Origin: a virus
Length of the DNA stretch: 59,133 nt
Virus record (IMG/VR): IMGVR_UViG_3300037145_000020
Location: 1-59,133 of that record
Direction: 5' to 3' (one strand)
Positions 407 to 58,281 of the stretch are shown here, one piece after another (position 1 is the stretch's first letter; every line of letters begins with the position of its first letter). The translations under genes were made by a program, and so were the position numbers. Under the pieces are notes generated by a model. It was not told the origin of the DNA. It made no database searches and saw nothing but the letters and a program-made list of their open reading frames with translations.

Positions 407-481
407 TGGTGCCGGTGCTCGGAGTTGAACCGAGTTCTATTGCTTACAAGACAATTGCATCACCGCTAATGCTTCTCCGGC
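407..481 (-). tRNA. tRNA-Thr (anticodon TGT)
   Basis: A 75-base cloverleaf folds on the minus strand. The acceptor is GCCGGAG with CACCGGC (one A-A mismatch), the D stem GCAT/ATGC with GG in the loop, and the anticodon stem ATTGT/GCAAT with loop CTTGTAA. The T arm is CTCGG-TTCAACT-CCGAG, and an A and an encoded CCA end the gene. The anticodon reads ACA. It stands two bases from a second tRNA-like copy and directly abuts the gene at 121-405, so they may be co-transcribed. Confidence 0.88.
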
Positions 482-483
482 TT

Positions 484-561
484 TGGTGCCTAGGGATGGA
501 CTCGAACCATCTCCCCCGCCTTACCTAAGGCGGTGCATCACCAATCAATGCTTCCACCGGC
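484..561 (-). tRNA. tRNA-like copy, 8-base anticodon loop (Thr GGT-derived?)
   Basis: This is a tandem paralogue of the neighbouring tRNA-Thr with the same D stem (GCAT/ATGC), a perfect T arm (GATGG-TTCGAGT-CCATC) and an encoded CCA. The anticodon stem CCGCC/GGCGG closes an 8-base loop, TTAGGTAA. This equals a tRNA-Thr(GGT) loop with one extra A after U33; read as a plain triplet AGG it would be Pro. The acceptor stem pairs poorly (GCCGGTG against CCTAGGC), and three bases instead of two join it to the D stem. It is either a degenerate copy or a quadruplet-reading tRNA. Confidence 0.5.
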
Positions 562-5598: not shown

Positions 5599-6068
5599 AC
5601 GCCGCCGGCCCCCGCGAGAAGGCGCTCCGCGACATGCGCGAGACCGCTCCGAAACCAAAACCGCGCGCCCGCGCGGCTCAACCGGCCGCCAAGGCGGTCA
5701 CGAAGGAGAGTGTTATGTCTGCTGCTGTCGAAACCGTTGACGTCGCGACGTCAAAGCCGCCGAAGCCCAAGAAGACCGCCAAGCCCAAACTGCCGAAGGT
5801 CGAGAAGGTGCTGGCGAAGAAGGCCCCCAAAAAGGCCAGTGCCAAGAAACCGGCCGCTGATGCGCCCGTTGCGGAATCGAAGGTTAGGCGCGGTTCGAAG
5901 CTCGCGCTCGTCATTTGGCTTCTGACGCGCGGCGAGGGCTGCACCATGGCCGATATAACCTCGGCCACTGGCTGGAAGACCATGAGTTTTCCACAACAGG
6001 CTAAGGCCGCTGGCCTCACTCTCCGCAAGGAGAAGGATGGCTCTGTCTCCCGGTACTTCGCATCGTAA
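5595..6068 (+). CDS. Lysine-rich DUF3489 protein
   Basis: The C-terminal 60 residues match DUF3489, a winged-helix-like domain common in alphaproteobacteria and their phages (KLALVIWLLTRGEGC, then TMADITSATGW). Before it lies a long Lys/Pro/Ala-rich tail like histone H1, which suggests non-specific DNA binding. GTG at 5595 is chosen for its GTGA overlap with the previous stop and a GGAG seven bases upstream. ATG at 5715 has an equally good AAGGAG and would remove 40 residues of the tail. Confidence 0.8.
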   Translation: MNAAGPREKALRDMRETAPKPKPRARAAQPAAKAVTKESVMSAAVETVDVATSKPPKPKKTAKPKLPKVEKVLAKKAPKKASAKKPAADAPVAESKVRRGSKLALVIWLLTRGEGCTMADITSATGWKTMSFPQQAKAAGLTLRKEKDGSVSRYFAS

Positions 6069-22907: not shown

Positions 22908-23513
22908 TCAGACGAGGCTCGGCGCCGTTGGTTTGTTTGCTGGAGCATTGCTGACGATCTGCGCTCCGGCTGTCGTCTGAGGAATCATGTCGACTATGCG
23001 CTTGGCGACGTAGTCCGGTGTAAGGCCGAAGTGTGCAGCCGCATCAGGGATGCACTGGATGATCTCTTTCGCCGCGGTGGCAAGTTCGGCGCTCGGCACA
23101 GTGACCGTCTTGCCTTCCATTTTCACGAGGCCGTCGGCGATCAATGACCCGGCTTGGTTCTGCAATGCATGAGCAAGCGAGTCCCGGTGCGCTTGGTCGA
23201 TCGTCACTCCGGTACTCTGCTGGAATCGAGTGCAGGCCCATCCGATCGCGGCAAGGATCAGCGCATTGACGGCGGAATTTATGTAGGGGGCAAATGCTCC
23301 GAAGGCTTGCCCGATATCAATGACGCCTCCGCTCGGCGGCAGGACGTAGGTGGGCGAGCCGATCGGTGCGCCGACGACTTGCGCCGGGGCGGCCTGGGCC
23401 TGCGGGACCGGAGATTGCTGGGTGAACTGCGCGTGCGCACCGTAATGGTCTGCAGCGTTGAGGATGAATGCGCAGAGAACCGTCGCGGCGGCGAATGCAA
23501 TGAAGCGCTTCAT
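22908..23513 (-). CDS. Secreted or anchored helical protein of the lysis region
   Basis: This protein of about 200 residues begins MKRFIAFAAATVLCAFILNA, a signal peptide or anchor, followed by a Pro/Ala/Gln-rich linker. A hydrophobic segment (INSAVNALILAAIGWACTRF) comes next, then a charged helical domain ending DYVAKRIVDMIPQ. The layout recalls LLH-type phage holin proteins, but similarity is loose. ATG 23513 is chosen because it starts the signal sequence; a leader hairpin lies just before it. Confidence 0.68.
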   Translation of the reverse strand: MKRFIAFAAATVLCAFILNAADHYGAHAQFTQQSPVPQAQAAPAQVVGAPIGSPTYVLPPSGGVIDIGQAFGAFAPYINSAVNALILAAIGWACTRFQQSTGVTIDQAHRDSLAHALQNQAGSLIADGLVKMEGKTVTVPSAELATAAKEIIQCIPDAAAHFGLTPDYVAKRIVDMIPQTTAGAQIVSNAPANKPTAPSLV

Positions 23514-23514
23514 G

Positions 23515-23551
23515 GGGAGCCTCCTAGCCAGAGGCTCCCGTAGCACGATTC
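23515..23551 (-). promoter_or_regulatory. Leader element: 12-base repeat plus hairpin, second copy
   Basis: GAATCGTGCTAC (minus strand, 23551-23540) runs directly into a strong hairpin, GGGAGCCT with AGGCTCCC (23515-23522 with 23532-23539), that ends one base before the ATG at 23513. The hairpin includes the AGGAGG-like ribosome site, so it could hide it. Confidence 0.5.
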
Positions 23552-23556
23552 CGGGA

Positions 23557-24081
23557 TTACTGCATCAAGGCGCGTTCGAGGCCGCGGGTGATATCGCTCT
23601 CGAAACGCGCCGGGCCTTGCTGGACGATCTTCGGCATTGTCGGGTCTGGCTTGCCGCCGAAATGCGCAGGGGCGCCGCCAATGCGTTCTGTGGGATTGGC
23701 AGGCTTGGCCTCGGTGACGGAAGCGGTGTGCGAGTCCATGAGTCCGCTCGATGCCATCTGCCCTATCTCGCGCAGGATGGACTCCAATCGCTCATGACTC
23801 TTTGAAATGCGGTCTAGGCGTTCGGTCAGACGCTGCACCTGTTTCCGGAGCCGGTCAGCATCGGCTCGCGCATCCAATGCCGCTTGCTCATAGGCGTTCC
23901 GCTCGTTTGATATCCGGTCAAACTCGCGCTTCGCGGTCGCCGCAGCCTGGTCGCCGTCCATAATCATCCTCGCGATGGTCTCTGCTGATGCGAGGGCGGC
24001 CTTGACCTCGGGCCGCTGTTTGATTGCCTCGAACTCATCGGGGAACAGTTCGTGGGATACGGCTTCGAGTGCTGCATTCAT
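23557..24081 (-). CDS. Coiled-coil phage protein
   Basis: This 174-residue protein begins MNAALEAVSHELFPDEFEAI and has a coiled coil over about 50-120 (ADADRLRKQVQRLTERLDRI). The start at 24081 overlaps the previous stop (ATGA). No family was recognised; cytoplasmic by appearance. Confidence 0.68.
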   Translation of the reverse strand: MNAALEAVSHELFPDEFEAIKQRPEVKAALASAETIARMIMDGDQAAATAKREFDRISNERNAYEQAALDARADADRLRKQVQRLTERLDRISKSHERLESILREIGQMASSGLMDSHTASVTEAKPANPTERIGGAPAHFGGKPDPTMPKIVQQGPARFESDITRGLERALMQ

Positions 24082-24287
24082 TTGATGTTTCTCCAAGAGT
24101 GGATATTCGCCATCGCGAATGTGCGTTCCGACATGGTTTCCAGATCAACCGCCTCTAACAGCCACTGCGTTTCAGGATGGTATTCGTTGTTTTCGAACGC
24201 CACCGACAGCGGTCGGATGCGGCGCATGGCACGTTCGCCGCGCCAGTTGGTGTAGTCGATCATGACCTCTTGTTTCGGATCGGCCAT
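24078..24287 (-). CDS. Small WYL-like domain protein
   Basis: This 69-residue protein has VMIDYTNWRGERAMRRIRPL followed by HPETQWLLEAVDLETMSERT and ends with FAMANIHSW. This order of strands resembles the WYL ligand-sensing domain and is common as a stand-alone protein in phages of alphaproteobacteria. ATG 24287 is preferred to a TTG six bases earlier. Its function in phages is unknown. Confidence 0.72.
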   Translation of the reverse strand: MADPKQEVMIDYTNWRGERAMRRIRPLSVAFENNEYHPETQWLLEAVDLETMSERTFAMANIHSWRNIK

Positions 24288-24290
24288 GCT

Positions 24291-24331
24291 CAAAACTAAA
24301 CCGCCCGGCCGGGGTTAATCCAGCCGGGCGG
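24291..24331 (-). terminator. Terminator after the outer-membrane protein gene
   Basis: CCGCCCGGC (24301-24309) pairs with GCCGGGCGG (24323-24331). On the minus strand the stem is followed by TTTAGTTTTG. It lies just past the barrel gene and so would separate its transcript from the lysis-region genes that follow. Confidence 0.75.
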
Positions 24332-24349
24332 CTCTGTTTGTCCCCGCTA

Positions 24350-25144
24350 TTAGTGGCCTACGCCAAAATCGTATTGAATTCCTACGCGGTACACAGTCTG
24401 CATTGAGGCGCTGGCGCTTACCTGTAGCGGCGCACCGCCTGGTGCAGCAAACACGCCGGTCAGGTCAGCGCCCTTCGTCGGCCATTCAATATCGGCGTGG
24501 ATTTTCAACGAGCCGTTGTTCGGAAGGCCATTCGTGCCGAGCGTCTGCCATCGGTAGCCAGTCGTCACGCCAGGAGCCAAGCCCCATGTCTGTCCGCTGG
24601 CTGAGCCGAAGGTCCCGGCGATCTCATACTCGTCCAAAATGAAACCGAGGTACTGTCGCGGAATCGTCGCGACAGCGATGTTCGCCGGCAGCATCCCCGA
24701 TGGATTGAATGTGGGAAAACTTATGCCGACATTGCCGACTGCCGCGAGGATCGTCTGGAAGACCTGCGCGCCGACGTCGAATTCCTCTCGAATACTCCAA
24801 AGGGAATTGACCGAAGCCCCACCCATCGAGCCGCTGATGTTCTGATACCGCAGATCGACCTCGATCTGACACCACGTCTGCAGAAGGCAGTTGCTCCAGA
24901 TGTATCCGGCATCGACGCCGACCGCGCCGCCATCAGATGTGAGATTGCCGCCAGTGAGGTTGGGAAAGGCGGAGCCGTTCACACTCGAGGAGGCCACGGC
25001 TGCGTCGGTTCCGACTCCGAGGTACCAGCCTGAGCCGGCGGGAGCGAAGGGCTGAATGTACGGAGGTGCCTTCAAGGGCATGTCGGCCGCAAAGGCCGGC
25101 GCGGCGATGAAAAACGCAACGGCAGCGAGAAGTAATTTCCGCAT
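24350..25144 (-). CDS. Outer-membrane beta-barrel protein (OmpA/Omp25-like), phage-borne
   Basis: This 264-residue protein begins with a clear Sec signal (MRKLLLAAVAFFIAAPAFA, cleaved before ADMPLK). A mature domain of alternating strands follows, ending RVGIQYDFGVGH with a charged/aromatic C-terminus as in outer-membrane barrels. The signal and the ADMPLKAPPY start are hallmarks of the barrel porin-like proteins of Hyphomicrobiales. AGGAG lies eight bases before the ATG. Flanked by a hairpin upstream and a terminator downstream, it looks like a moron. It could change phage receptors or surface properties. Confidence 0.85.
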   Translation of the reverse strand: MRKLLLAAVAFFIAAPAFAADMPLKAPPYIQPFAPAGSGWYLGVGTDAAVASSSVNGSAFPNLTGGNLTSDGGAVGVDAGYIWSNCLLQTWCQIEVDLRYQNISGSMGGASVNSLWSIREEFDVGAQVFQTILAAVGNVGISFPTFNPSGMLPANIAVATIPRQYLGFILDEYEIAGTFGSASGQTWGLAPGVTTGYRWQTLGTNGLPNNGSLKIHADIEWPTKGADLTGVFAAPGGAPLQVSASASMQTVYRVGIQYDFGVGH

Positions 25145-25222
25145 TGGTGGTCTCCTGCTGTGATTCGGGATTGCGGGGAAACCGTAGCGCAGGTTGCTGT
25201 GGTTTTTATGCCACAGATAAAA
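25145..25222 (-). promoter_or_regulatory. Gap with hairpin upstream of the barrel gene
   Basis: CTGTGG (25197-25202) pairs with CCACAG (25211-25216) around an eight-base A/T-rich loop, between the endolysin stop and the barrel start. There is no T tract on the minus strand. It could be an operator or weak terminator; a separate promoter for the barrel gene would have to lie here. Confidence 0.4.
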
Positions 25223-26056
25223 TTACTTTGCGGTGCGCAATTTGGCGGTGATCGCGGCCCATGTGGCTGGCCCGGCAATGCCGTCGGGCTGAAGGTGGAC
25301 GTTCTGCTGGAACTGGCGCACGGCGGCTGATGTCGTCCGACCATACGAACCATCCACGGTCAGGGCTGGATTGGCCCCCAGGCGGTTCAGAGCCTCTTGC
25401 AGGGCGGCTCCGCTATGGAGCCCCTGCGGAGGTGGCATCGGGGGCGGAACGCTTGCTGGCGGCGTTTCTTGTGGCGTTACGGCCCCTGCCAACTGGAGGG
25501 CGGGTTCCAGGGCTACCATCCGAAGCATAACTGGCACGATGCCGACCTGCTCATCGATGGCTGTCGCACTCCAGACGTTGTCGCGAATGTACTTCCCGCC
25601 CGTATAGATGTTCGTGCCCGCGAATAGATAGCCAGTGTGCTTGCCGTGCTCTCGGGGGCCGAATCCATTCCAGGCTTCGCCCTCGTACATTGAACGCGGC
25701 CAAGTCCATCCGACCACCTGGTCGATCTTGTCGAGGTGCAGGGCATCGCGGAGGCCATTCTCAAATGCGCTCGGGCCAGTGAATGGACCGCGGCCTCGCG
25801 GGACGTCTGAGGTCTTGCGGTCGAGAGGATCGCCATTGCCAAAATAGGTTCGGAAGATTCCCGCTCCGCCTTCGCGCTCGCCGACTGCGGCAAGCCAGAT
25901 CGCCGGCACTCCCGTCGTGTGGCTCACGTCCGTGTAGTGGGGCAGGTAAGTCAGCAGGCGTTCGGCCGTCTCATCCACTTCGGCCTCGCGCGTCACCACC
26001 ATGCTCGCGAGGAGCGAGGTGTATTCCGCGGAGAGGGTGTCGAAGGGAAAGTTCAT
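25223..26056 (-). CDS. Endolysin with C-terminal peptidoglycan-binding domain
   Basis: In this 277-residue protein, the first about 190 residues form a lysozyme-like catalytic domain with GVPAIWLAAVGEREGG, RGRGPFTGPSAFENGLRDAL and a GYLFAGTNIYTGGKYIRDNV block. A Pro-rich linker (PPPMPPPQG) leads to a peptidoglycan-binding type 1 domain (LQEALNRLGANPALTVDGSY, then GIAGPATWAAI). It cuts the cell wall at the end of infection. There is no signal peptide, so it needs a holin. ATG 26056 overlaps the previous stop. Confidence 0.88.
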   Translation of the reverse strand: MNFPFDTLSAEYTSLLASMVVTREAEVDETAERLLTYLPHYTDVSHTTGVPAIWLAAVGEREGGAGIFRTYFGNGDPLDRKTSDVPRGRGPFTGPSAFENGLRDALHLDKIDQVVGWTWPRSMYEGEAWNGFGPREHGKHTGYLFAGTNIYTGGKYIRDNVWSATAIDEQVGIVPVMLRMVALEPALQLAGAVTPQETPPASVPPPMPPPQGLHSGAALQEALNRLGANPALTVDGSYGRTTSAAVRQFQQNVHLQPDGIAGPATWAAITAKLRTAK

Positions 26057-26850
26057 TGCGAGGGCACTGATATCCACAAAACAGTGAGCACCATCGAATT
26101 TTCCCCACCTGATCCGGTGTAGGCGGCATTGAAATTCGAATAGGTCACGGGCTCGTTGACCATGCCTGAGAGGACTATCAAGTTGTTGTTTGCGTAGCTC
26201 AGGCCGATGGCGCTCGGACCACCGCTTGGACCCCCGGATGAGCCGCCAATCGGCACTTGCTGATCGCCTCCGTCGGCCTGAAAGCTCGAACTGTTGTTGT
26301 AATAGAGGCCGCCTGCGCCTCCTCCCGTGAAGCTCTGCCCCACATTTTTGTAGACATACATCGCCTGCACAATTTCGATGACGGTATTGGCACCCTGTGC
26401 TGGGATGATGGTGATTGGGACGGTCGTGAGATTGGCAATTTGGGAATCAGTCAATCGGACTGTAGTGGCATTTACTGGACTGCTGCCGCCTCCGACTGCC
26501 GAGACTTTGCCGCCGCTGCAGGTCGTTGTTGCCCCATCGCAGGACAGCAATCCTTCGACCGAATTTGTCCCTAGTTGAATCGCTGGCGACGCATCGCTGC
26601 GCATGTATGTCGGCGCAGAGCCATTGATCGCGGCTGGGCCCGCCGTTGCCGTTGGATTTCCAGCGGATGGGCCGCCGCCTGACCCACAGGGCGCTCCCGC
26701 ATCCTCGGCTTGGTACGTTCCGAACCACTCCACGCAATTGCCGGGCGTGACGACGCCGTGCTGCTGCACGCCCGGTGGCGCAGAGAGTTGCGCTACTGCT
26801 GGCGAAGCCAGAAATGCGAGAGCGAGGCCGATTAGGATTCTTCGCATCAT
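26053..26850 (-). CDS. Fibre-like protein with signal peptide and Cys motif
   Basis: This 265-residue protein begins [20 protein letters not shown], a textbook Sec signal. The mature part has QHGVVTPGNCVEWFGTYQ followed by DAGAPCG, a two-Cys motif shared with the protein at 48987-50864. Then come Gly/Ser/Thr-rich strands and a C-terminal beta domain (LSYANNNLIVLSGMVNEPVT). The ATG overlaps the previous stop (ATGA). It looks like the tip of a fibre, but the signal peptide implies export. Confidence 0.75.
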   Translation of the reverse strand: MMRRILIGLALAFLASPAVAQLSAPPGVQQHGVVTPGNCVEWFGTYQAEDAGAPCGSGGGPSAGNPTATAGPAAINGSAPTYMRSDASPAIQLGTNSVEGLLSCDGATTTCSGGKVSAVGGGSSPVNATTVRLTDSQIANLTTVPITIIPAQGANTVIEIVQAMYVYKNVGQSFTGGGAGGLYYNNSSSFQADGGDQQVPIGGSSGGPSGGPSAIGLSYANNNLIVLSGMVNEPVTYSNFNAAYTGSGGENSMVLTVLWISVPSQ

Positions 26851-30232: not shown

Positions 30233-30912
30233 GCTTGCACCACCGTTGCTGCGACTCCCGTTGTCCTCGGCAGCACGCCTGAATTCGTCACGATGGCATC
30301 CTGCACCGGAGTGAGCGGGAATTCGAAGGTGTAAGTCATCGTGAGATTGAGTCCGTCAGTACAATAGCAATTCCCGAGGCCAGGGAACAGATTGAGCAGG
30401 AGTTGGTTGATCGACGGAATTGAGCCGTCGCAAATGTTCGCGAGCGCCTTAGCGAAGAGCAGCGTCCGGTATGCGGCGTCGGTGAGGGAGAAGTTTGTCG
30501 TGACTCCTGCGCCTCCCGAATAGAACGGTGCTTGGCCGAATGGCGTCAGTGTCGTCGGCGTGCCCGCTTCCTCGAAGCCGAGATACGGTCCGGAGCCCGC
30601 ATCGGGGACCGAGATCACGCGGGTGATTCCGAGGACCCGTCCTAATCGATCAAGACCGTAACCGATCGCTGTATCAATCGACCAAACATCATCGAAAAAT
30701 TGATCAAAGTTCTCCGTTGGGTCGACGTACTGCGCCATGTTGGTGACAAGCGCCATCAGCGTCGCGCTGTTGGCGTATTGGCTGAGCACGGTCAACCAAA
30801 TGTCGAAGGCCGGAATCGTCCCAACGGGGCTAACGCCGATGGTGAAGGAACCTACGGCATTCGATCCAGCCGGGTTTGGATTAGGATATACGGGACCTGG
30901 ACCGGCTGGCAT
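30229..30912 (-). CDS. Baseplate/tail protein, DUF2612-like
   Basis: This 227-residue protein has the DUF2612 core FDDVWSIDTAIGYGLDRLGR followed by VLGITR and a helical segment DAAYRTLLFAKALANICDGS. Proteins of this family are encoded right after the J-like baseplate protein in contractile-tail phages and are thought to complete the baseplate wedge or join fibres. It starts one base inside the J gene's stop. Confidence 0.8.
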   Translation of the reverse strand: MPAGPGPVYPNPNPAGSNAVGSFTIGVSPVGTIPAFDIWLTVLSQYANSATLMALVTNMAQYVDPTENFDQFFDDVWSIDTAIGYGLDRLGRVLGITRVISVPDAGSGPYLGFEEAGTPTTLTPFGQAPFYSGGAGVTTNFSLTDAAYRTLLFAKALANICDGSIPSINQLLLNLFPGLGNCYCTDGLNLTMTYTFEFPLTPVQDAIVTNSGVLPRTTGVAATVVQA

Positions 30913-32801
30913 CAGGTCACCGTCACTGCGATGTTGCCGGCATTGATGGTTGGCTCTTGCGCAATGCCCACTGCAACATCGGCCGAGCCAGCAGCAACGG
31001 CGGTGACCGTGACGCCCGCAGTGATCGATGCGCTCGATGCGGTCGTGGCTCCCGAGGTCACATAGACGCCAGCGCCACCCGGCGTACCGGAAGTCTGGGA
31101 CACGATTGTCGTGCCTGTCGGGACGCCCGTGCCTGCGATCACGTCGCCGATGCCGATGGTGCCGGTCACTGAGGTGGTCGTGAGATTGGTTCCCGAGCCG
31201 CTACCGGTGAAAGTCGCGCCGGCAACGGTTGCCGATGCACTGAGGTTGTAGGTGCCGGCGCCGCCTGATCCGCTCCCGAAGCTCACGATTGTCGTGCCAA
31301 TCGGAATGCCGGAAACCGAGTCGAGGCCGGTTACCCACTGCCCGACCGCAAGCGTCCCGCTGACCACCGCAGTAACGGTCAGGACCGTGCCGGCAACGCT
31401 GCCCACCACGACGGCACCGGCCGAATTTGCCGAGCCGACTTGGATGGTTCTGATCGCGGCCCAAGGGCCTAGCGCCGCGACCACTGCGCCATATTGGATG
31501 GCATAGATCACCGAGCCGATGCGCGCTCGAGGAGGCGTGGGGGTGTTTGTGACTGGTGCCGCGGTGATCGTGGTCGACGCCACTGTCTGCGTCGTGTTGA
31601 CCACGTAGGTGCCCGCGTTGCCTTGGCCTGTGCCGAGCGCGGTGATCGTGGTGCCTGGGACAACGTTGGGCCCGGAGATTGTCTGTCCCACACCGATCGT
31701 GCCGGCGCTGATCGAGGTGACTGTGAGCGTGGTGCCGGCGATCGATCCGACGAAGGTCGCGCCGGCCGTGGTCCCAGTGAAAGCCGCGATGATTGCTGCC
31801 TGGACGAGTGCCACTGCGGTGGAGGGCACCAGCGGGCTGTTCGCAATGTTGACAGCGAAGTAAATCGGCAGTGTCGCCGGGATGTTGAAGGTGATGTTGT
31901 AGGTCGGGAACGGCGGCGAATAGGCTGGATTCGTATCCTCCACCGCAACCGTGGTGTTCCCGTTCATCGGGATGCCGGGGGGCTTTTTCTTCCAGATCGC
32001 CTGGGCAACAGCGGAAGCAACGCCTCCGGTCGCGGCGACGTAGACCGAATTTGCCGCCAGCGTGTAGCCGCCGATCGTGGCGGGTGAGTTTGTTGGGTTG
32101 TCGATCACGTAGGCGTCGAGGACGCCTGGCACACTCAGAACTGCCCCGAGGATTGCCGTGTTCGAATTGACCGCATTGGCGGCGACGCTCTGCTGCCTTC
32201 GGAGCTCGAACTGCTGCGAGGTCTCAGTGTTCTGCCCGACGTCGCCGGAGATGACCGTCGCCGTATCCCATCCGGGGATGGTTTGGTAAATCGTGACCGT
32301 CTCTGGGATGGCGAGTGGGCCAGGAACGAGAGCGGCGAATTGCAGCGTGATCGAGCCCCCGCTCGGTATCGTTCCGCCTCCGGTGCATTGGTAGAGATTC
32401 CCGGCCGAATCCACGACCGTTGCGAAGCTGGTCGGTCCGCCGGGGAGGACCGTGTCGTTTGCGCCGACGCAGGCGATCTGCAGGGTGGTCGGCTCGGCGG
32501 AATCCCTCTTCAGAAAGTTGATGCGCGCGATGGCGTCCTGCATGCGCCCTTGGGCGAAGGCAGGATCGGTCTGCGTCACGTAGTACGTAATGATCTGATA
32601 GAAATTGTTGATGCACGCGGCTTGGCTCGATGCGAGTTGGCTTTGCGGTGCGGAGCCATTGCTCCAATTGAACGTGACGTTGAAGCTCTGGTTATAATCG
32701 GCCTGCACGCCAGCAAGAATTGCCGGGCCTGACGGAGCGATGACTCCGAGCGGTCCCCACGACAGTGCTGGAACGTTCGTTGTTCCGACGTTTGCCATCA
32801 A
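30912..32801 (-). CDS. Baseplate J-like protein with three inserted beta modules
   Basis: This 629-residue protein has an N-terminal half typical of baseplate wedge proteins of the J family ([58 protein letters not shown]). In the C-terminal half three copies of a Gly/Thr-rich beta module are inserted, at about residues 349-414, 460-532 and 532-594, splitting the usual C-terminal domain. The modules match those in the sheath and other virion genes. It builds the baseplate rim. Confidence 0.88.
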
Positions 32802-33867: not shown

Positions 33868-34845
33868 TCACTGCTGCGGTATCGGCCGACCGTAGGCTGG
33901 GTTGTAGCAGTAAACCGTACTCATCCACTGCCCGTTTCTCACCAGCGAATCCAGGGCGTGATCGAGCTTGTAGACGCCCCACACGGAATTGCCATTGACC
34001 ATCTGCGGCGGCTTGAATGTCTGGCTGCTTGATGACGCTGCCGAAAGGGTACCGGAGAGCAGACTGCTGTTGACCTGCACCGTTCCCCCCAAGGCAATCA
34101 GCGGATTAAAAAGCGTTTTGACGATCACGCCCTGCTTGGTGATCGTCGGATATCCGATCATCTCTCCGTTGGGGAGAGGAGAAATAACCGGAGAGGTGAT
34201 TGTGCTATTGCTCCGGACTCCTCCGAGCGGCCAGATTGCCAGCGTGTTTGATCTGGTATCCAGAGCGCAAGCAATGCGGGCGTGATCCTTGACGGCTTGT
34301 ATCTGGTCATAAAGCGTGCCGGGAAAATACGGATTCGGCAGTTGGACGCTGACGCCGTTATTCTCGAATTTCATCCCGAGTTGCCGAGCGAAGCCCGACA
34401 TGATCGTGGCGACGTCTGTGGAGCCCGTGAAGCCTGATGGTGTGGCCGGCGCCACCGCCGAAGCGACTCCGCTGACCGACTCGAACACAAACGGCACATC
34501 GGGCATGCCATCGAAGTCGGGATAGGCGTTCAGGATGGTCCCAGAGAACACCGTGGCCTGCCTGGCGACGGCATCTCCCGCGGTGACCGTGATCGAATTC
34601 TTCGGGACGAGGTTGAAGGAAACGCCCAACGTCGAAAGCTGATAGATCAGGCTCGGCGTCAATCCCCAAACCTTGACCTGTGCCTTTTGCTCGATGACGG
34701 CGCCAGAGTTTTGCACGCGCACGCTTGTGCGCAGGTTCGCAATCGTCGCGGTCGATCCGCCCTCGGAGAAGTTATTCGGCTGGTTGGTGCCGGCGTTGTT
34801 CGCGAGCGCCACCGCCAGCGTGATGAGCTTTTGGGTGAAACTCAT
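33868..34845 (-). CDS. Baseplate hub protein
   Basis: This 325-residue protein matches hub proteins of contractile tails by content and place: STATIANLRTSVRVQNSGAV, an FSGTILNAYPDFDGMPDVPF segment, and SGFARQLGMKFENNGVSVQL. The hub trimer connects tube and spike. It is coupled to the plug gene by an ATGA overlap. Confidence 0.82.
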   Translation of the reverse strand: MSFTQKLITLAVALANNAGTNQPNNFSEGGSTATIANLRTSVRVQNSGAVIEQKAQVKVWGLTPSLIYQLSTLGVSFNLVPKNSITVTAGDAVARQATVFSGTILNAYPDFDGMPDVPFVFESVSGVASAVAPATPSGFTGSTDVATIMSGFARQLGMKFENNGVSVQLPNPYFPGTLYDQIQAVKDHARIACALDTRSNTLAIWPLGGVRSNSTITSPVISPLPNGEMIGYPTITKQGVIVKTLFNPLIALGGTVQVNSSLLSGTLSAASSSSQTFKPPQMVNGNSVWGVYKLDHALDSLVRNGQWMSTVYCYNPAYGRPIPQQ

Positions 34846-39646: not shown

Positions 39647-41593
39647 CTATTGGACGAGGATGCTGCTCAAGTCGAGTGTGTTCACAGAACCGTTATCGAT
39701 ATAGAAAAATAGAATTGACCACGGTCCACGGCCGGCGCGCACGGTAGCGCTAGGGATGAGGACTTGCAGGTAGTAACCCTGCGTCTGCAATGCTCCCGCG
39801 ATGTTCGCTCCGGCGAGATTGTTAACCTCGAGGATTTCTGATGCATCCAACGTGTCTGGGCCGAACATGCGGAAATTCAGGCCAGCCTGAATGACCGTCT
39901 GCATGGCACCTGTGATCAGGTCGACGCCGGCTTGGTTGAACGGGATCGACAGCGTATTCGCGAGCAGATTGAGCAGTGCGGTCTGCGCTGAAGTATTGAA
40001 CCAGATTTGGTTCTCATAACTATCCGCCCACTCGAATGGCCCGGTGATTGAGCCATTCTGATTCCAGACGAAGTTCGCGTTCGCCGCGCCATATGCCCCG
40101 TAGAAATTGTAACCGTTGGCGAGCAGGTTCCCGGCCGTGGTTGGGTCGGTGACGTTGGCGGTGATGCCGGGCTGTTGACGGAAGGCGAACGAGGTTCGGC
40201 CGTTGGTGGCGCCGAAATTGGTCGACGCGGCAATGCCGAGATTGAAGGCGCATAGCCCGCTGTCCTGCGTGGCCCCTCCTTCCCAGATCAGCATCGTGCC
40301 GGAATCGTTGTCGGCCTTGAAGATTTGACCGAGGCTTGAAGCCGCATCGCTCGATGCGGCCGGGCTTTCGTCCGGGTCCCAGCAGAAATAGCCGAACCGG
40401 TTTCCGCCGAGAGCGGTGTTCTTCCACGCCGAGAAGGCTTGCTTGACCGTGTTGCCGTTCCCCCCATCGGGGTCGAATAGCGTCATGAAGTTCGCCCAAC
40501 TCACTGACTGGTTGATGAGCGAATTCATGAAGGTGGCCGGGACCGCAGCGTTCGCGCCCTGTGAAAGCGTGGCGCCTGTGGCCGAGGTCAGAAGCAGCGG
40601 AGCCGCGAGCGTCCCGGTGCAGAAGGCCGCGCTCGAATTCGATCCAGTTATTCCCGAGGTGATGACGAATGCGCCGGAGACTGAGTCGAAGGTGACTGTC
40701 GGCGCTGTCGCCGTGCTCGTCATCGCTTCTGGCGGAACGATGTTCTGCTGTGCGCCGCTGATCCGGTAGAGGCCGACCCCACCGGTGGTCCCTGAGATTT
40801 GCGAGAGAATGGACGGCGCCCCGGTCACACCAGAACCAGCAATGGTGAGACCAGCAGTGATCGTGCCAGTGATGGATCCGGTAACGTTGAGGACCGTTGA
40901 GGAGCCAGTGCAGGAGGCCGAACTAGCAGTCGTCGCGACGGATGTGACGTAGACGCCATCACCGCCAGGCGTACCAGAGGTCTGCGAGACGATCGTGGTC
41001 CCACTCGGCACTCCGGTGCCTGAGATCGTGTCGCCCACCGAAATGTATCCATTGGCGACGGCGGAGACCGTTAGGGCAGTGCCGCTGCCGCTCGCCGTGA
41101 AGCCTGCGCCGATCGATGCGGTAAACGATGCCTCGCTCGGATCGGTGAACGCCGCGCTGATCCCTGCGGCTGCTGCGGAGTAGCTGTTGTAACTGGCGAG
41201 GCTGATCGAACTAATGACATGGCTATATCCGTCCATCAAAACGGTGAGCGAGCCCGATAGGGCCTGCATCTGGGCAACCGTATTGATGGCGGCAAAGTTT
41301 CCACCGCGGAGATAGGCGGCGACGGCGCTTTCGTAATACTGCGCGAACAGGAGGGCCGACGGGAGGATAGTCGCGCCAGTGAAGCCGGCGAAGTAGATCG
41401 TCGCGAGCGAAGTCTCAAGCGCTCCGGGACCGAAAAAACTTGAAACCGCTTCCTCGTCCTCAAAACTCTGAACGGTTCCGACTGGAACGCGGGTATTCGT
41501 CGTGAGCATCAAGCCAGTGCCGTCGAGGCCCGTTCCGCCAGCGGAAATGACCGAGGGAACGACATTCACAATAGCCGAAGCAGGAATCGTCAT
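39647..41593 (-). CDS. Tail sheath protein (DUF3383) with two inserted modules
   Basis: In this 648-residue protein, the N-terminal part (VNVVPSVISAGGTGLDGTGL; YYESAVAAYLRGGNF; LSGSLTVLMDGYSHVISSIS) and the C-terminal part (FFYIDNGSVNTLDLSSILVQ) match DUF3383 sheath proteins. Between about residues 164 and 286 two copies of the Gly/Thr-rich beta module are inserted, probably as outward decorations. The sheath contracts to drive the tube through the envelope. Confidence 0.9.
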   Translation of the reverse strand: MTIPASAIVNVVPSVISAGGTGLDGTGLMLTTNTRVPVGTVQSFEDEEAVSSFFGPGALETSLATIYFAGFTGATILPSALLFAQYYESAVAAYLRGGNFAAINTVAQMQALSGSLTVLMDGYSHVISSISLASYNSYSAAAAGISAAFTDPSEASFTASIGAGFTASGSGTALTVSAVANGYISVGDTISGTGVPSGTTIVSQTSGTPGGDGVYVTSVATTASSASCTGSSTVLNVTGSITGTITAGLTIAGSGVTGAPSILSQISGTTGGVGLYRISGAQQNIVPPEAMTSTATAPTVTFDSVSGAFVITSGITGSNSSAAFCTGTLAAPLLLTSATGATLSQGANAAVPATFMNSLINQSVSWANFMTLFDPDGGNGNTVKQAFSAWKNTALGGNRFGYFCWDPDESPAASSDAASSLGQIFKADNDSGTMLIWEGGATQDSGLCAFNLGIAASTNFGATNGRTSFAFRQQPGITANVTDPTTAGNLLANGYNFYGAYGAANANFVWNQNGSITGPFEWADSYENQIWFNTSAQTALLNLLANTLSIPFNQAGVDLITGAMQTVIQAGLNFRMFGPDTLDASEILEVNNLAGANIAGALQTQGYYLQVLIPSATVRAGRGPWSILFFYIDNGSVNTLDLSSILVQ

Positions 41594-57132: not shown

Positions 57133-57149
57133 TTTAAACCGGGTTTAAA
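57133..57149. repeat. 17-base palindrome over the capsid stop codon
   Basis: TTTAAACC (57133-57140) and GGTTTAAA (57142-57149) are exact inverse complements around a single G. The capsid stop codon lies inside the right arm. The A/T-rich palindrome may bind a protein or take part in message processing. Confidence 0.6.
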
Positions 57150-58281
57150 CGCCGATCATCTGTACGCCGGCTGCGGGGATGCGCCAAACAGTTCCCCACG
57201 TTCCAGACGTCTGTTTCTGCTTCCAAGCCGAGAGCTCAGGCACGATCTTATGCGCGCGGAGCTTCTCGTTGTAGGCGCAGTACACAACCGTCTGTCGCTG
57301 AAGATCGTCTGCGATCAACTGGACGTAATTGCCGGCGGTCGAGAAGCCTTGCGGGTTGTTCGTCGTCTGCTGCCCGTATTGGGGCGCAGTCTCGATCGTC
57401 ATGTTCGGGTAGCCTTCCTTCAGCAGTGTCTTGACGAAAACGCCGAAGGAGTTCGCGAAGGTCATCGCGATCTGGCTTTGCGGGCTCATCACAAGCTTGC
57501 ACTTGCTGTTGATGTCCCATGCGCCATTGGTCTGCGCGACAAGCTGGGTCACCATCGCAACGATGTCGTTGTAGACCTCATTCGCGGTCGCGGCCGGCGA
57601 GCCGTTGTCGAACCATGAGGTTCCGCCCCATGCCTTCGTGGCCGGGGTAAGCGCAGCGGAAAGCTGCGGGTTGTTCAGCAGGCCGTAGTTCTGCAGGCCC
57701 TGCACGCCGAAGGCGTAGGTGAGGTTCTGATACCGGTTGAGCAAGTCCGCCGCAGCGAGGCCGATTTCAGAAATCCAGTTGATCTTGGCGAGGCCAACGC
57801 GGTCGACCTGCAGTTCGCCATAGCTCAGGATCGTCTGGAACAGATAGCTCTGGAGTTGCGGGAAGTTGAAGTTTGCTCCAGCCCTGCCGTTGTTGACATA
57901 GTCATCGTAAGACGAGACCTCGCCTGTGCTTTCCACATAGGGGAAGAACCATGTCTGATCGGTCCACGTACCGGCTTTTCGTTCTCCCGCAATCTTCGCC
58001 AGTTCGAGCGGGGAGAAGATGATCCGGATGATTTCCGGATCGATCGCCGAAGTGAGCATCCATGGCAGCGCAGCGTTCGGGTCGGTCGATAGAGGGCCCG
58101 GCAAGCCGCCGGCGGCGTCCATCGCCATCGCGGCTGGATTGATGCCTCGACGTTTCTCATCGACGGTCAGGTACCGCTTCATGCTCCACGGGAGCACGAC
58201 GCCTTGGGCGGCAAGCTCTCGGCGGTCCTCATTGAAGGCCACCGTGGCTTCGGAGACCGAATTGAACTGCCACTTATCCAT
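57145..58281 (-). CDS. Major capsid protein (DUF2184)
   Basis: This 378-residue protein matches DUF2184-type HK97-fold capsid proteins: LPWMLTSAIDPEIIRIIFSP, TWTDQTWFFPYVESTGEVSS, SYGELQVDRVGLAKINWISE, and a C-terminal KLRAHKIVPELSAWKQKQTS. It forms the icosahedral shell. Length is normal and no prohead protease domain is fused. It is preceded by the cement-protein gene, the usual order. Confidence 0.92.
   Translation of the reverse strand: MDKWQFNSVSEATVAFNEDRRELAAQGVVLPWSMKRYLTVDEKRRGINPAAMAMDAAGGLPGPLSTDPNAALPWMLTSAIDPEIIRIIFSPLELAKIAGERKAGTWTDQTWFFPYVESTGEVSSYDDYVNNGRAGANFNFPQLQSYLFQTILSYGELQVDRVGLAKINWISEIGLAAADLLNRYQNLTYAFGVQGLQNYGLLNNPQLSAALTPATKAWGGTSWFDNGSPAATANEVYNDIVAMVTQLVAQTNGAWDINSKCKLVMSPQSQIAMTFANSFGVFVKTLLKEGYPNMTIETAPQYGQQTTNNPQGFSTAGNYVQLIADDLQRQTVVYCAYNEKLRAHKIVPELSAWKQKQTSGTWGTVWRIPAAGVQMIGV

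What the first reader, a model, noticed from the sequence alone, without database searches (positions are those of the whole stretch)
24291..25222. Phage-borne outer-membrane barrel as an independent unit
A complete Hyphomicrobiales-type outer-membrane barrel gene with its own ribosome site is flanked by a hairpin upstream and an intrinsic terminator downstream, between endolysin and lysis-region genes. That is the form of a moron. Insertion of such a barrel in the host envelope could block superinfection or alter receptors.
Basis: partly seen in the sequence, partly recalled or inferred. Interest (0 to 1): 0.65.

Follow-up and report, generated by a model that had tools for sequence, protein, structure and literature searches.

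The report
Phage-only outer-membrane barrel family
A gene in this uncultured phage makes a small outer-membrane barrel protein that belongs to a previously unnamed, phage-only family sitting next to the cell-lysis genes with its own apparent on/off signals, probably used to change the surface of the infected cell.

Summary
The gene is real. It lies on the minus strand at 24350-25144 and encodes 264 residues: a signal peptide followed by a predicted 8-strand outer-membrane barrel. It has a ribosome site, a hairpin upstream and a strong terminator-like hairpin downstream. It matches no Pfam, PHROG or NCBIfam model and no cultured phage, but I found 23 relatives in uncultured phages, in or beside the lysis genes, behind at least five unrelated cell-wall hydrolase types. 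The first half is homologous to host PF13505 barrels. Each phage version aligned carries 29-38 residues between strands 4 and 5, on the predicted periplasmic side, where host barrels have 6-7. The "independent unit" idea gains comparative support: a 39-nt promoter-like palindrome lies 70-87 nt before the start codon in 16 of the 24 phages and occurs once in the window, and T-tailed hairpins follow about half of the genes. "Recently acquired moron" is weakened: composition matches the phage, the location is conserved, no empty site was found, and no integrase was found in 14 records. Function is inferred: most likely an envelope protein that blocks superinfection or loss of progeny on debris. 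The main rival is an outer-membrane lysis factor. New variant of a known kind.

The parts
24350..25144 (-). outer-membrane barrel gene, 264 aa, ATG start, TAA stop
   Evidence: AlphaFold2 8-strand model; 23 phage homologues
25085..25144 (-). signal peptide MRKLLLAAVAFFIAAPAFAA, followed by DMPLKAPP motif shared with host barrels
   Evidence: sequence, alignments
24659..24769 (-). phage-specific insertion between strands 4 and 5 (residues 126-162; helix plus proline-rich stretch), predicted periplasmic
   Evidence: 29-38 residues in all 23 phage members aligned, 6-7 in six host barrels; secondary structure
25182..25220 (-). conserved 39-nt promoter/operator-like element GTGTtGC-n6-AnGnCACACC-n9-TA
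   Evidence: PWM leave-one-out rank 1 of 118190 positions (19.9 bits, next 10.3); out-of-sample; pair and -10 counts
   Evidence: fold z -2.8
25181..25186 (-). TACGGT, -10-like TAnnnT at a fixed place behind the palindrome (8 of 16 phages)
25152..25156 (-). ribosome-binding site AGGAG
   Evidence: sequence
24292..24334 (-). 15-bp GC-rich hairpin followed by AGTTTT, intrinsic-terminator-like
   Evidence: fold -33.4 kcal/mol, z -4.2; similar T-tailed hairpins in relatives
25223..26077 (-). upstream neighbour: endolysin with C-terminal PG_binding_1
   Evidence: homologues also precede the barrel in L002, L006, L007, L012, L015, L032, L033, L034
24078..24293 (-). downstream neighbour: 71-aa protein, phrog_3715 (unknown), sub-threshold WYL match
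23557..24096 (-). coiled-coil protein without TM segment
   Evidence: weak spanin-profile hit E 0.001 that may be coiled-coil bias
22908..23546 (-). signal-peptide/TM protein, holin-like by position; homologues lie just before the barrel in L013, L032, L034, L041 and just after it in L027
   Evidence: phrog_17576 unknown

Best explanation
Shown by sequence comparison: the gene belongs to a phage-specific family of 8-strand outer-membrane barrels, descended from PF13505-type barrels of Hyphomicrobiales hosts and remodelled by a proline-rich insertion on the predicted periplasmic side. It is kept beside the lysis genes of many uncultured, probably virulent phages. Inferred from conservation: it has its own promoter (palindromic operator plus TAnnnT) and often its own terminator, so it can be made as a short separate message, apart from the late read-through message. 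Inferred mechanism: the protein is exported by Sec, folded by BAM and inserted into the infected cell's outer membrane. There it displaces or blocks the phage's own receptor, with the insertion acting from the periplasmic face, so that further phages do not enter the doomed cell and progeny are not lost on its debris. This would work like T5 Llp and lambdoid Cor/Lc, with an unrelated protein.
For: 8-strand barrel with signal peptide and aromatic C-terminal strand in most members. Host-barrel ancestry. Phage-only insertion in every member aligned. Conserved upstream element at constant distance, including out-of-sample loci; in L045 it lies between a tRNA-Thr gene and the barrel, where a separate promoter would be useful. 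T-tailed hairpins downstream. No tyrosine or serine integrase above cut-off in 14 records, as expected of virulent phages. A tested precedent: T5 Llp blocks FhuA from the periplasmic side, and such proteins are held to prevent secondary infection and loss of phage on debris (PMC9586334).
Against: No direct functional evidence. Extracellular loops are not more variable than the strands, as an arms race at the surface might produce. The element is not found, or only weakly, in 8 of 24 phages. The linkage is to lysis genes. The receptor and host are unknown. Promoter, terminator and topology are predictions.
Confidence: 0.42

Rival explanations
1. Outer-membrane lysis factor: the barrel works with holin and endolysin at the end of infection. 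Its periplasmic insertion meets the degraded wall or the lysis proteins, and it destabilises the outer membrane, replacing or helping spanins.
For: Position in the lysis module is kept behind at least five unrelated hydrolase types (PG_binding_1 endolysin, Amidase_2, GH108, Phage_lysozyme, Rv2525c-like). A simple lipobox scan finds no o-spanin-like lipoprotein near the barrel in 11 of 14 loci; the three hits are a plausible one in L005, a short ORF in L009 and a doubtful TM protein in the window. The insertion is predicted to face the periplasm. Lambda Lom is co-transferred with holin genes and was proposed to take part in lysis (PMC9836094). A Lipase_3 gene sits in the same module of L005, L007, L032 and barrel-less L035.
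Against: Its own promoter-like element and terminator suggest expression apart from the lysis operon. The spanin search is insensitive: the profile did not ring in the E. coli control genome. No outer-membrane barrel has been shown to lyse cells, to my knowledge. Endolysin relatives L035 and L037 do without it.
Confidence: 0.27
2. Host-conditioning outer-membrane protein: a captured host barrel that keeps the infected cell's outer membrane intact or improves uptake during infection, without a specific anti-phage or lysis role.
For: Clear ancestry from abundant host barrels; GC and codon usage adapted to the phage.
Against: The phage-wide insertion and the dedicated leader element suggest a specialised role, and an 8-strand barrel is too narrow to be a classical porin (general knowledge).
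Confidence: 0.2
3. Classical moron for lysogenic conversion: a recently acquired host gene expressed from a prophage to benefit the lysogen.
For: Own promoter-like element and terminator; absent from some endolysin relatives.
Against: No integrase above cut-off in 14 records; no family member beyond ordinary host paralogues in 297 genomes of the family and 397 of the order at the cut-offs used; no compositional difference; conserved location.
Confidence: 0.07

Closest known systems
Host outer-membrane beta-barrel domain PF13505 (Omp25/31-like proteins of Hyphomicrobiales)
   Same: Signal peptide, A-A-D-M/L-P motif, strands 1-4 homologous (hhalign 99%), 8-strand topology
   Different: P0001 does not match the PF13505 model at E 1 whereas host barrels do; 29-38 residues between strands 4 and 5 instead of 6-7
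Lambda Lom / Ail-OmpX-PagC family (PF06316)
   Same: Phage-encoded 8-strand outer-membrane barrel in a late region; predicted fold similar to Ail and OmpX (Z about 11.8)
   Different: No Pfam match; insertion; lies beside lysis genes; no integrase found in these phages
Lc/NmpC porin of phage PA-2 (from memory)
   Same: Phage-encoded outer-membrane barrel near lysis genes, reported to confer superinfection resistance
   Different: Large trimeric porin of a temperate lambdoid phage, no homology expected; not compared here
T5 Llp and Cor lipoproteins
   Same: Possible role: phage envelope protein blocking the receptor, for Llp from the periplasmic face (PMC9586334)
   Different: Small lipoproteins, not barrels
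Outer-membrane barrels annotated in uncultured Caudovirales (BFVD, e.g. A0A6J5T9E2, A0A8S5L9C8)
   Same: Predicted small barrels encoded by phages (Foldseek E 1.5e-5 to 7e-4)
   Different: About 10% identity; insertion and leader element not examined there

Membership tests
phage-encoded outer-membrane 8-strand barrel | signal peptide plus 8 predicted transmembrane strands | tested here: met
PF13505 OMP_b-brl | score above the Pfam cut-off | tested here: not met
   no hit at E 1 for P0001 or any of 13 members; remote homology shown by hhalign
Lom/Ail family (PF06316) | Pfam model match | tested here: not met
   only the fold is shared
moron | own promoter | tested here: inconclusive
   conserved promoter-like element; transcription not measured
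moron | own terminator | tested here: inconclusive
   strong T-tailed hairpin, similar ones in about half of the relatives; not measured
moron | inserted between genes that are adjacent in related phages (empty site) | tested here: inconclusive
   L035 and L037/L038 lack the gene, but flanks are not shared on both sides
moron | composition differing from the phage (common but not obligatory) | tested here: not met
moron | expressed from a prophage | not testable with these tools
   no integrase above cut-off in 14 records, but records may be fragments
superinfection-exclusion proteins | expression blocks adsorption or entry | not testable with these tools
   needs an experiment
spanin | i-spanin TM helix plus o-spanin lipobox | tested here: not met
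   barrel has neither feature; a functional role in lysis is a separate, untested question
virion protein | present in particles | not testable with these tools
   needs proteomics

The most novel reading that the evidence does not exclude
The family is a new kind of outer-membrane lysis effector: a captured host barrel with an added periplasmic arm that disrupts the outer membrane in place of spanins in phages of Hyphomicrobiales.
Probability: 0.17. Interest if true: 0.8.

Novelty: new variant of a known kind. Interest (0 to 1): 0.5.

Why it matters
Phage-encoded outer-membrane barrels such as Lom have been known for decades without a settled role during infection. This family gives 24 diverged examples, with no match in the public family libraries searched, a diagnostic insertion, a private regulatory element and a constant place beside lysis genes. 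That makes the choice between superinfection exclusion and outer-membrane lysis directly testable.

Tried and rejected
Pfam, PHROGs and NCBIfam models for the barrel: nothing meaningful. PDB by sequence: nothing. Cultured phages by tblastn with three family members, and plasmids with P0001: nothing, so host and receptor cannot be named. Search with the downstream coiled-coil protein: no relatives. Leader as a known RNA family: Rfam finds only a tRNA elsewhere in the window. Leader as a conserved RNA hairpin: the TGT/ACA core hardly varies and the outer pairs are mixed (82 of 128 cells paired), so a protein-binding palindrome is the simpler reading. Leader inherited from host omp genes: no match upstream of the host barrels fetched. 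Hypervariable surface loops: not seen. The 39-mer register was first chosen by eye within about 100 nt; the leave-one-out and out-of-sample ranks were computed afterwards to check it. The related phages are not fully independent (nearest-neighbour barrel identity 36-84%). A simple regular expression for the palindrome is weaker than the matrix: it finds the element in only 13 of 24 loci.

Full report
What is there. The window is one uncultured virus record of 59,133 bases. It encodes a contractile-tailed phage: tail sheath 39647-41593, baseplate wedge 30912-32801, baseplate hub 33868-34845, major head protein 57145-58281, all on the minus strand. Late genes run on the minus strand through tail fibre genes to an endolysin (25223-26077), then the barrel gene (24350-25144), then small proteins of unknown or membrane type. 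The barrel gene has an AGGAG ribosome site, a 78-nt non-coding leader with a hairpin, and a 15-bp GC hairpin with AGTTTT behind it, both hairpin regions better than dinucleotide shuffles.

The protein. P0001 has a signal peptide and the AADMPLKAPP start typical of Hyphomicrobiales outer-membrane barrels. With an alignment of 23 family members, AlphaFold2 gives eight strands (39-57, 66-83, 92-107, 110-125, 163-179, 182-202, 208-220, 244-262) and a helix at 126-136 (mean pLDDT 72.5). VIA-align puts it with NspA, OmpA, OmpW and OprF barrels at Z about 15. A profile comparison with barrels from a Xanthobacteraceae MAG and genomes of its family gives 99% probability over residues 2-136. Three of those host barrels were tested and match PF13505, whereas P0001 and its phage relatives match no Pfam, PHROG or NCBIfam model convincingly.

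A phage-only family. Scans of viral contigs gave 23 further phage members besides the window; none was found in cultured phages or plasmids. In 297 genomes of the host family and 397 of the order only ordinary host paralogues, or nothing, reached the cut-offs. Each of the 23 phage proteins aligned has 29-38 residues between strands 4 and 5; six host barrels have 6-7. In an up-down barrel that turn is on the side of the termini, so the insertion is predicted to be periplasmic; this is inference from topology.

Neighbourhood. In the phages examined in detail the barrel follows tail fibre and wall-hydrolase genes and is followed by small coiled-coil or membrane proteins, in one orientation. The hydrolases are of at least five unrelated types: the PG_binding_1 endolysin, Amidase_2, GH108, Phage_lysozyme and an Rv2525c-like glycoside hydrolase. 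The place is thus kept while the neighbours are exchanged. L008 is an exception: no hydrolase was recognised in the 2.8 kb before its barrel. The neighbours of L042, L043, L045 and L047-L049 were not annotated gene by gene. Two endolysin relatives, L035 and L037/L038, lack the barrel, so it is accessory.

Own signals. The upstream hairpin is part of a 39-nt element, GTGTtGC-n6-AnGnCACACC-n9-TA, that starts 70-87 nt before the start codon. A weight matrix from 11 phages, each left out in turn, ranks the held-out element first in its locus in 8 cases and second in 3. In the window it is first of 118,190 positions with 19.9 bits against 10.3 for the next. Five loci fetched later have it as top hit at the same distance (L033; L041, L045, L047 and L049), and L034 has a weaker top hit 126 nt upstream. 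It was not found by the matrix in L002, L003, L027, L032, L042, L043 and L048; L043 shows a partial match by eye. A TAnnnT hexamer stands at a fixed place behind the palindrome in 8 of 16. In L045 the element lies between a tRNA-Thr gene and the barrel. Good T-tailed hairpins follow the barrel in the window, L002, L005, L008, L009, L013, L027, L033, L045, L047 and L048; in L003, L006 and L014 the next gene follows too closely. A promoter and a terminator are therefore likely but not measured.

Moron or not. GC, GC3 and codon usage fit the phage, the location is conserved, and no tyrosine or serine integrase passed the cut-off in 14 records (records may be incomplete, and three weak sub-threshold tyrosine-integrase matches exist). 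This argues against a recent moron for lysogens and for an old accessory gene of probably virulent phages.

Function. Two mechanisms compete. Superinfection exclusion or protection of progeny from debris has a tested precedent in T5 Llp, which jams FhuA from the periplasmic side (PMC9586334), and fits an independently expressed envelope protein. An outer-membrane lysis role fits the constant lysis-gene neighbourhood, the periplasmic insertion, and the proposal that lambda Lom, co-transferred with holin genes, takes part in lysis (PMC9836094). A spanin-like pair was not recognised in the window, but the search is insensitive. I favour exclusion at about 0.42, lysis at about 0.27, and general host conditioning at about 0.2.

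Verdict. It is a new variant of a known kind; interest 0.5.

Noticed in passing
L007:6772-7521, L005:7428-8264, L032:8299-8991, L035:5974-6750: A Lipase_3 (class 3 lipase) gene sits in or just behind the lysis module of four of these phages, next to or near the barrel; it could be an outer-membrane-directed lysis enzyme in the manner of mycobacteriophage LysB.
   Followed up: partly
L048:5791-6693: The barrel reading frame is open in frame with an upstream small holin-like TM gene; either an in-frame overlap (GTG start at 5974) or a natural fusion.
   Followed up: no
L045:5297-5374: A tRNA-Thr gene lies directly before the barrel's leader element.
   Followed up: no
window 407-561: tRNA-Thr(tgt) and an adjacent tRNA-like gene for which ARAGORN gives a four-base anticodon, aggt.
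   Followed up: no
window 22908-23546: Signal-peptide/TM protein whose homologues lie immediately before the barrel in L013, L032, L034 and L041 and just after it in L027; possibly the holin of these phages.
   Followed up: partly
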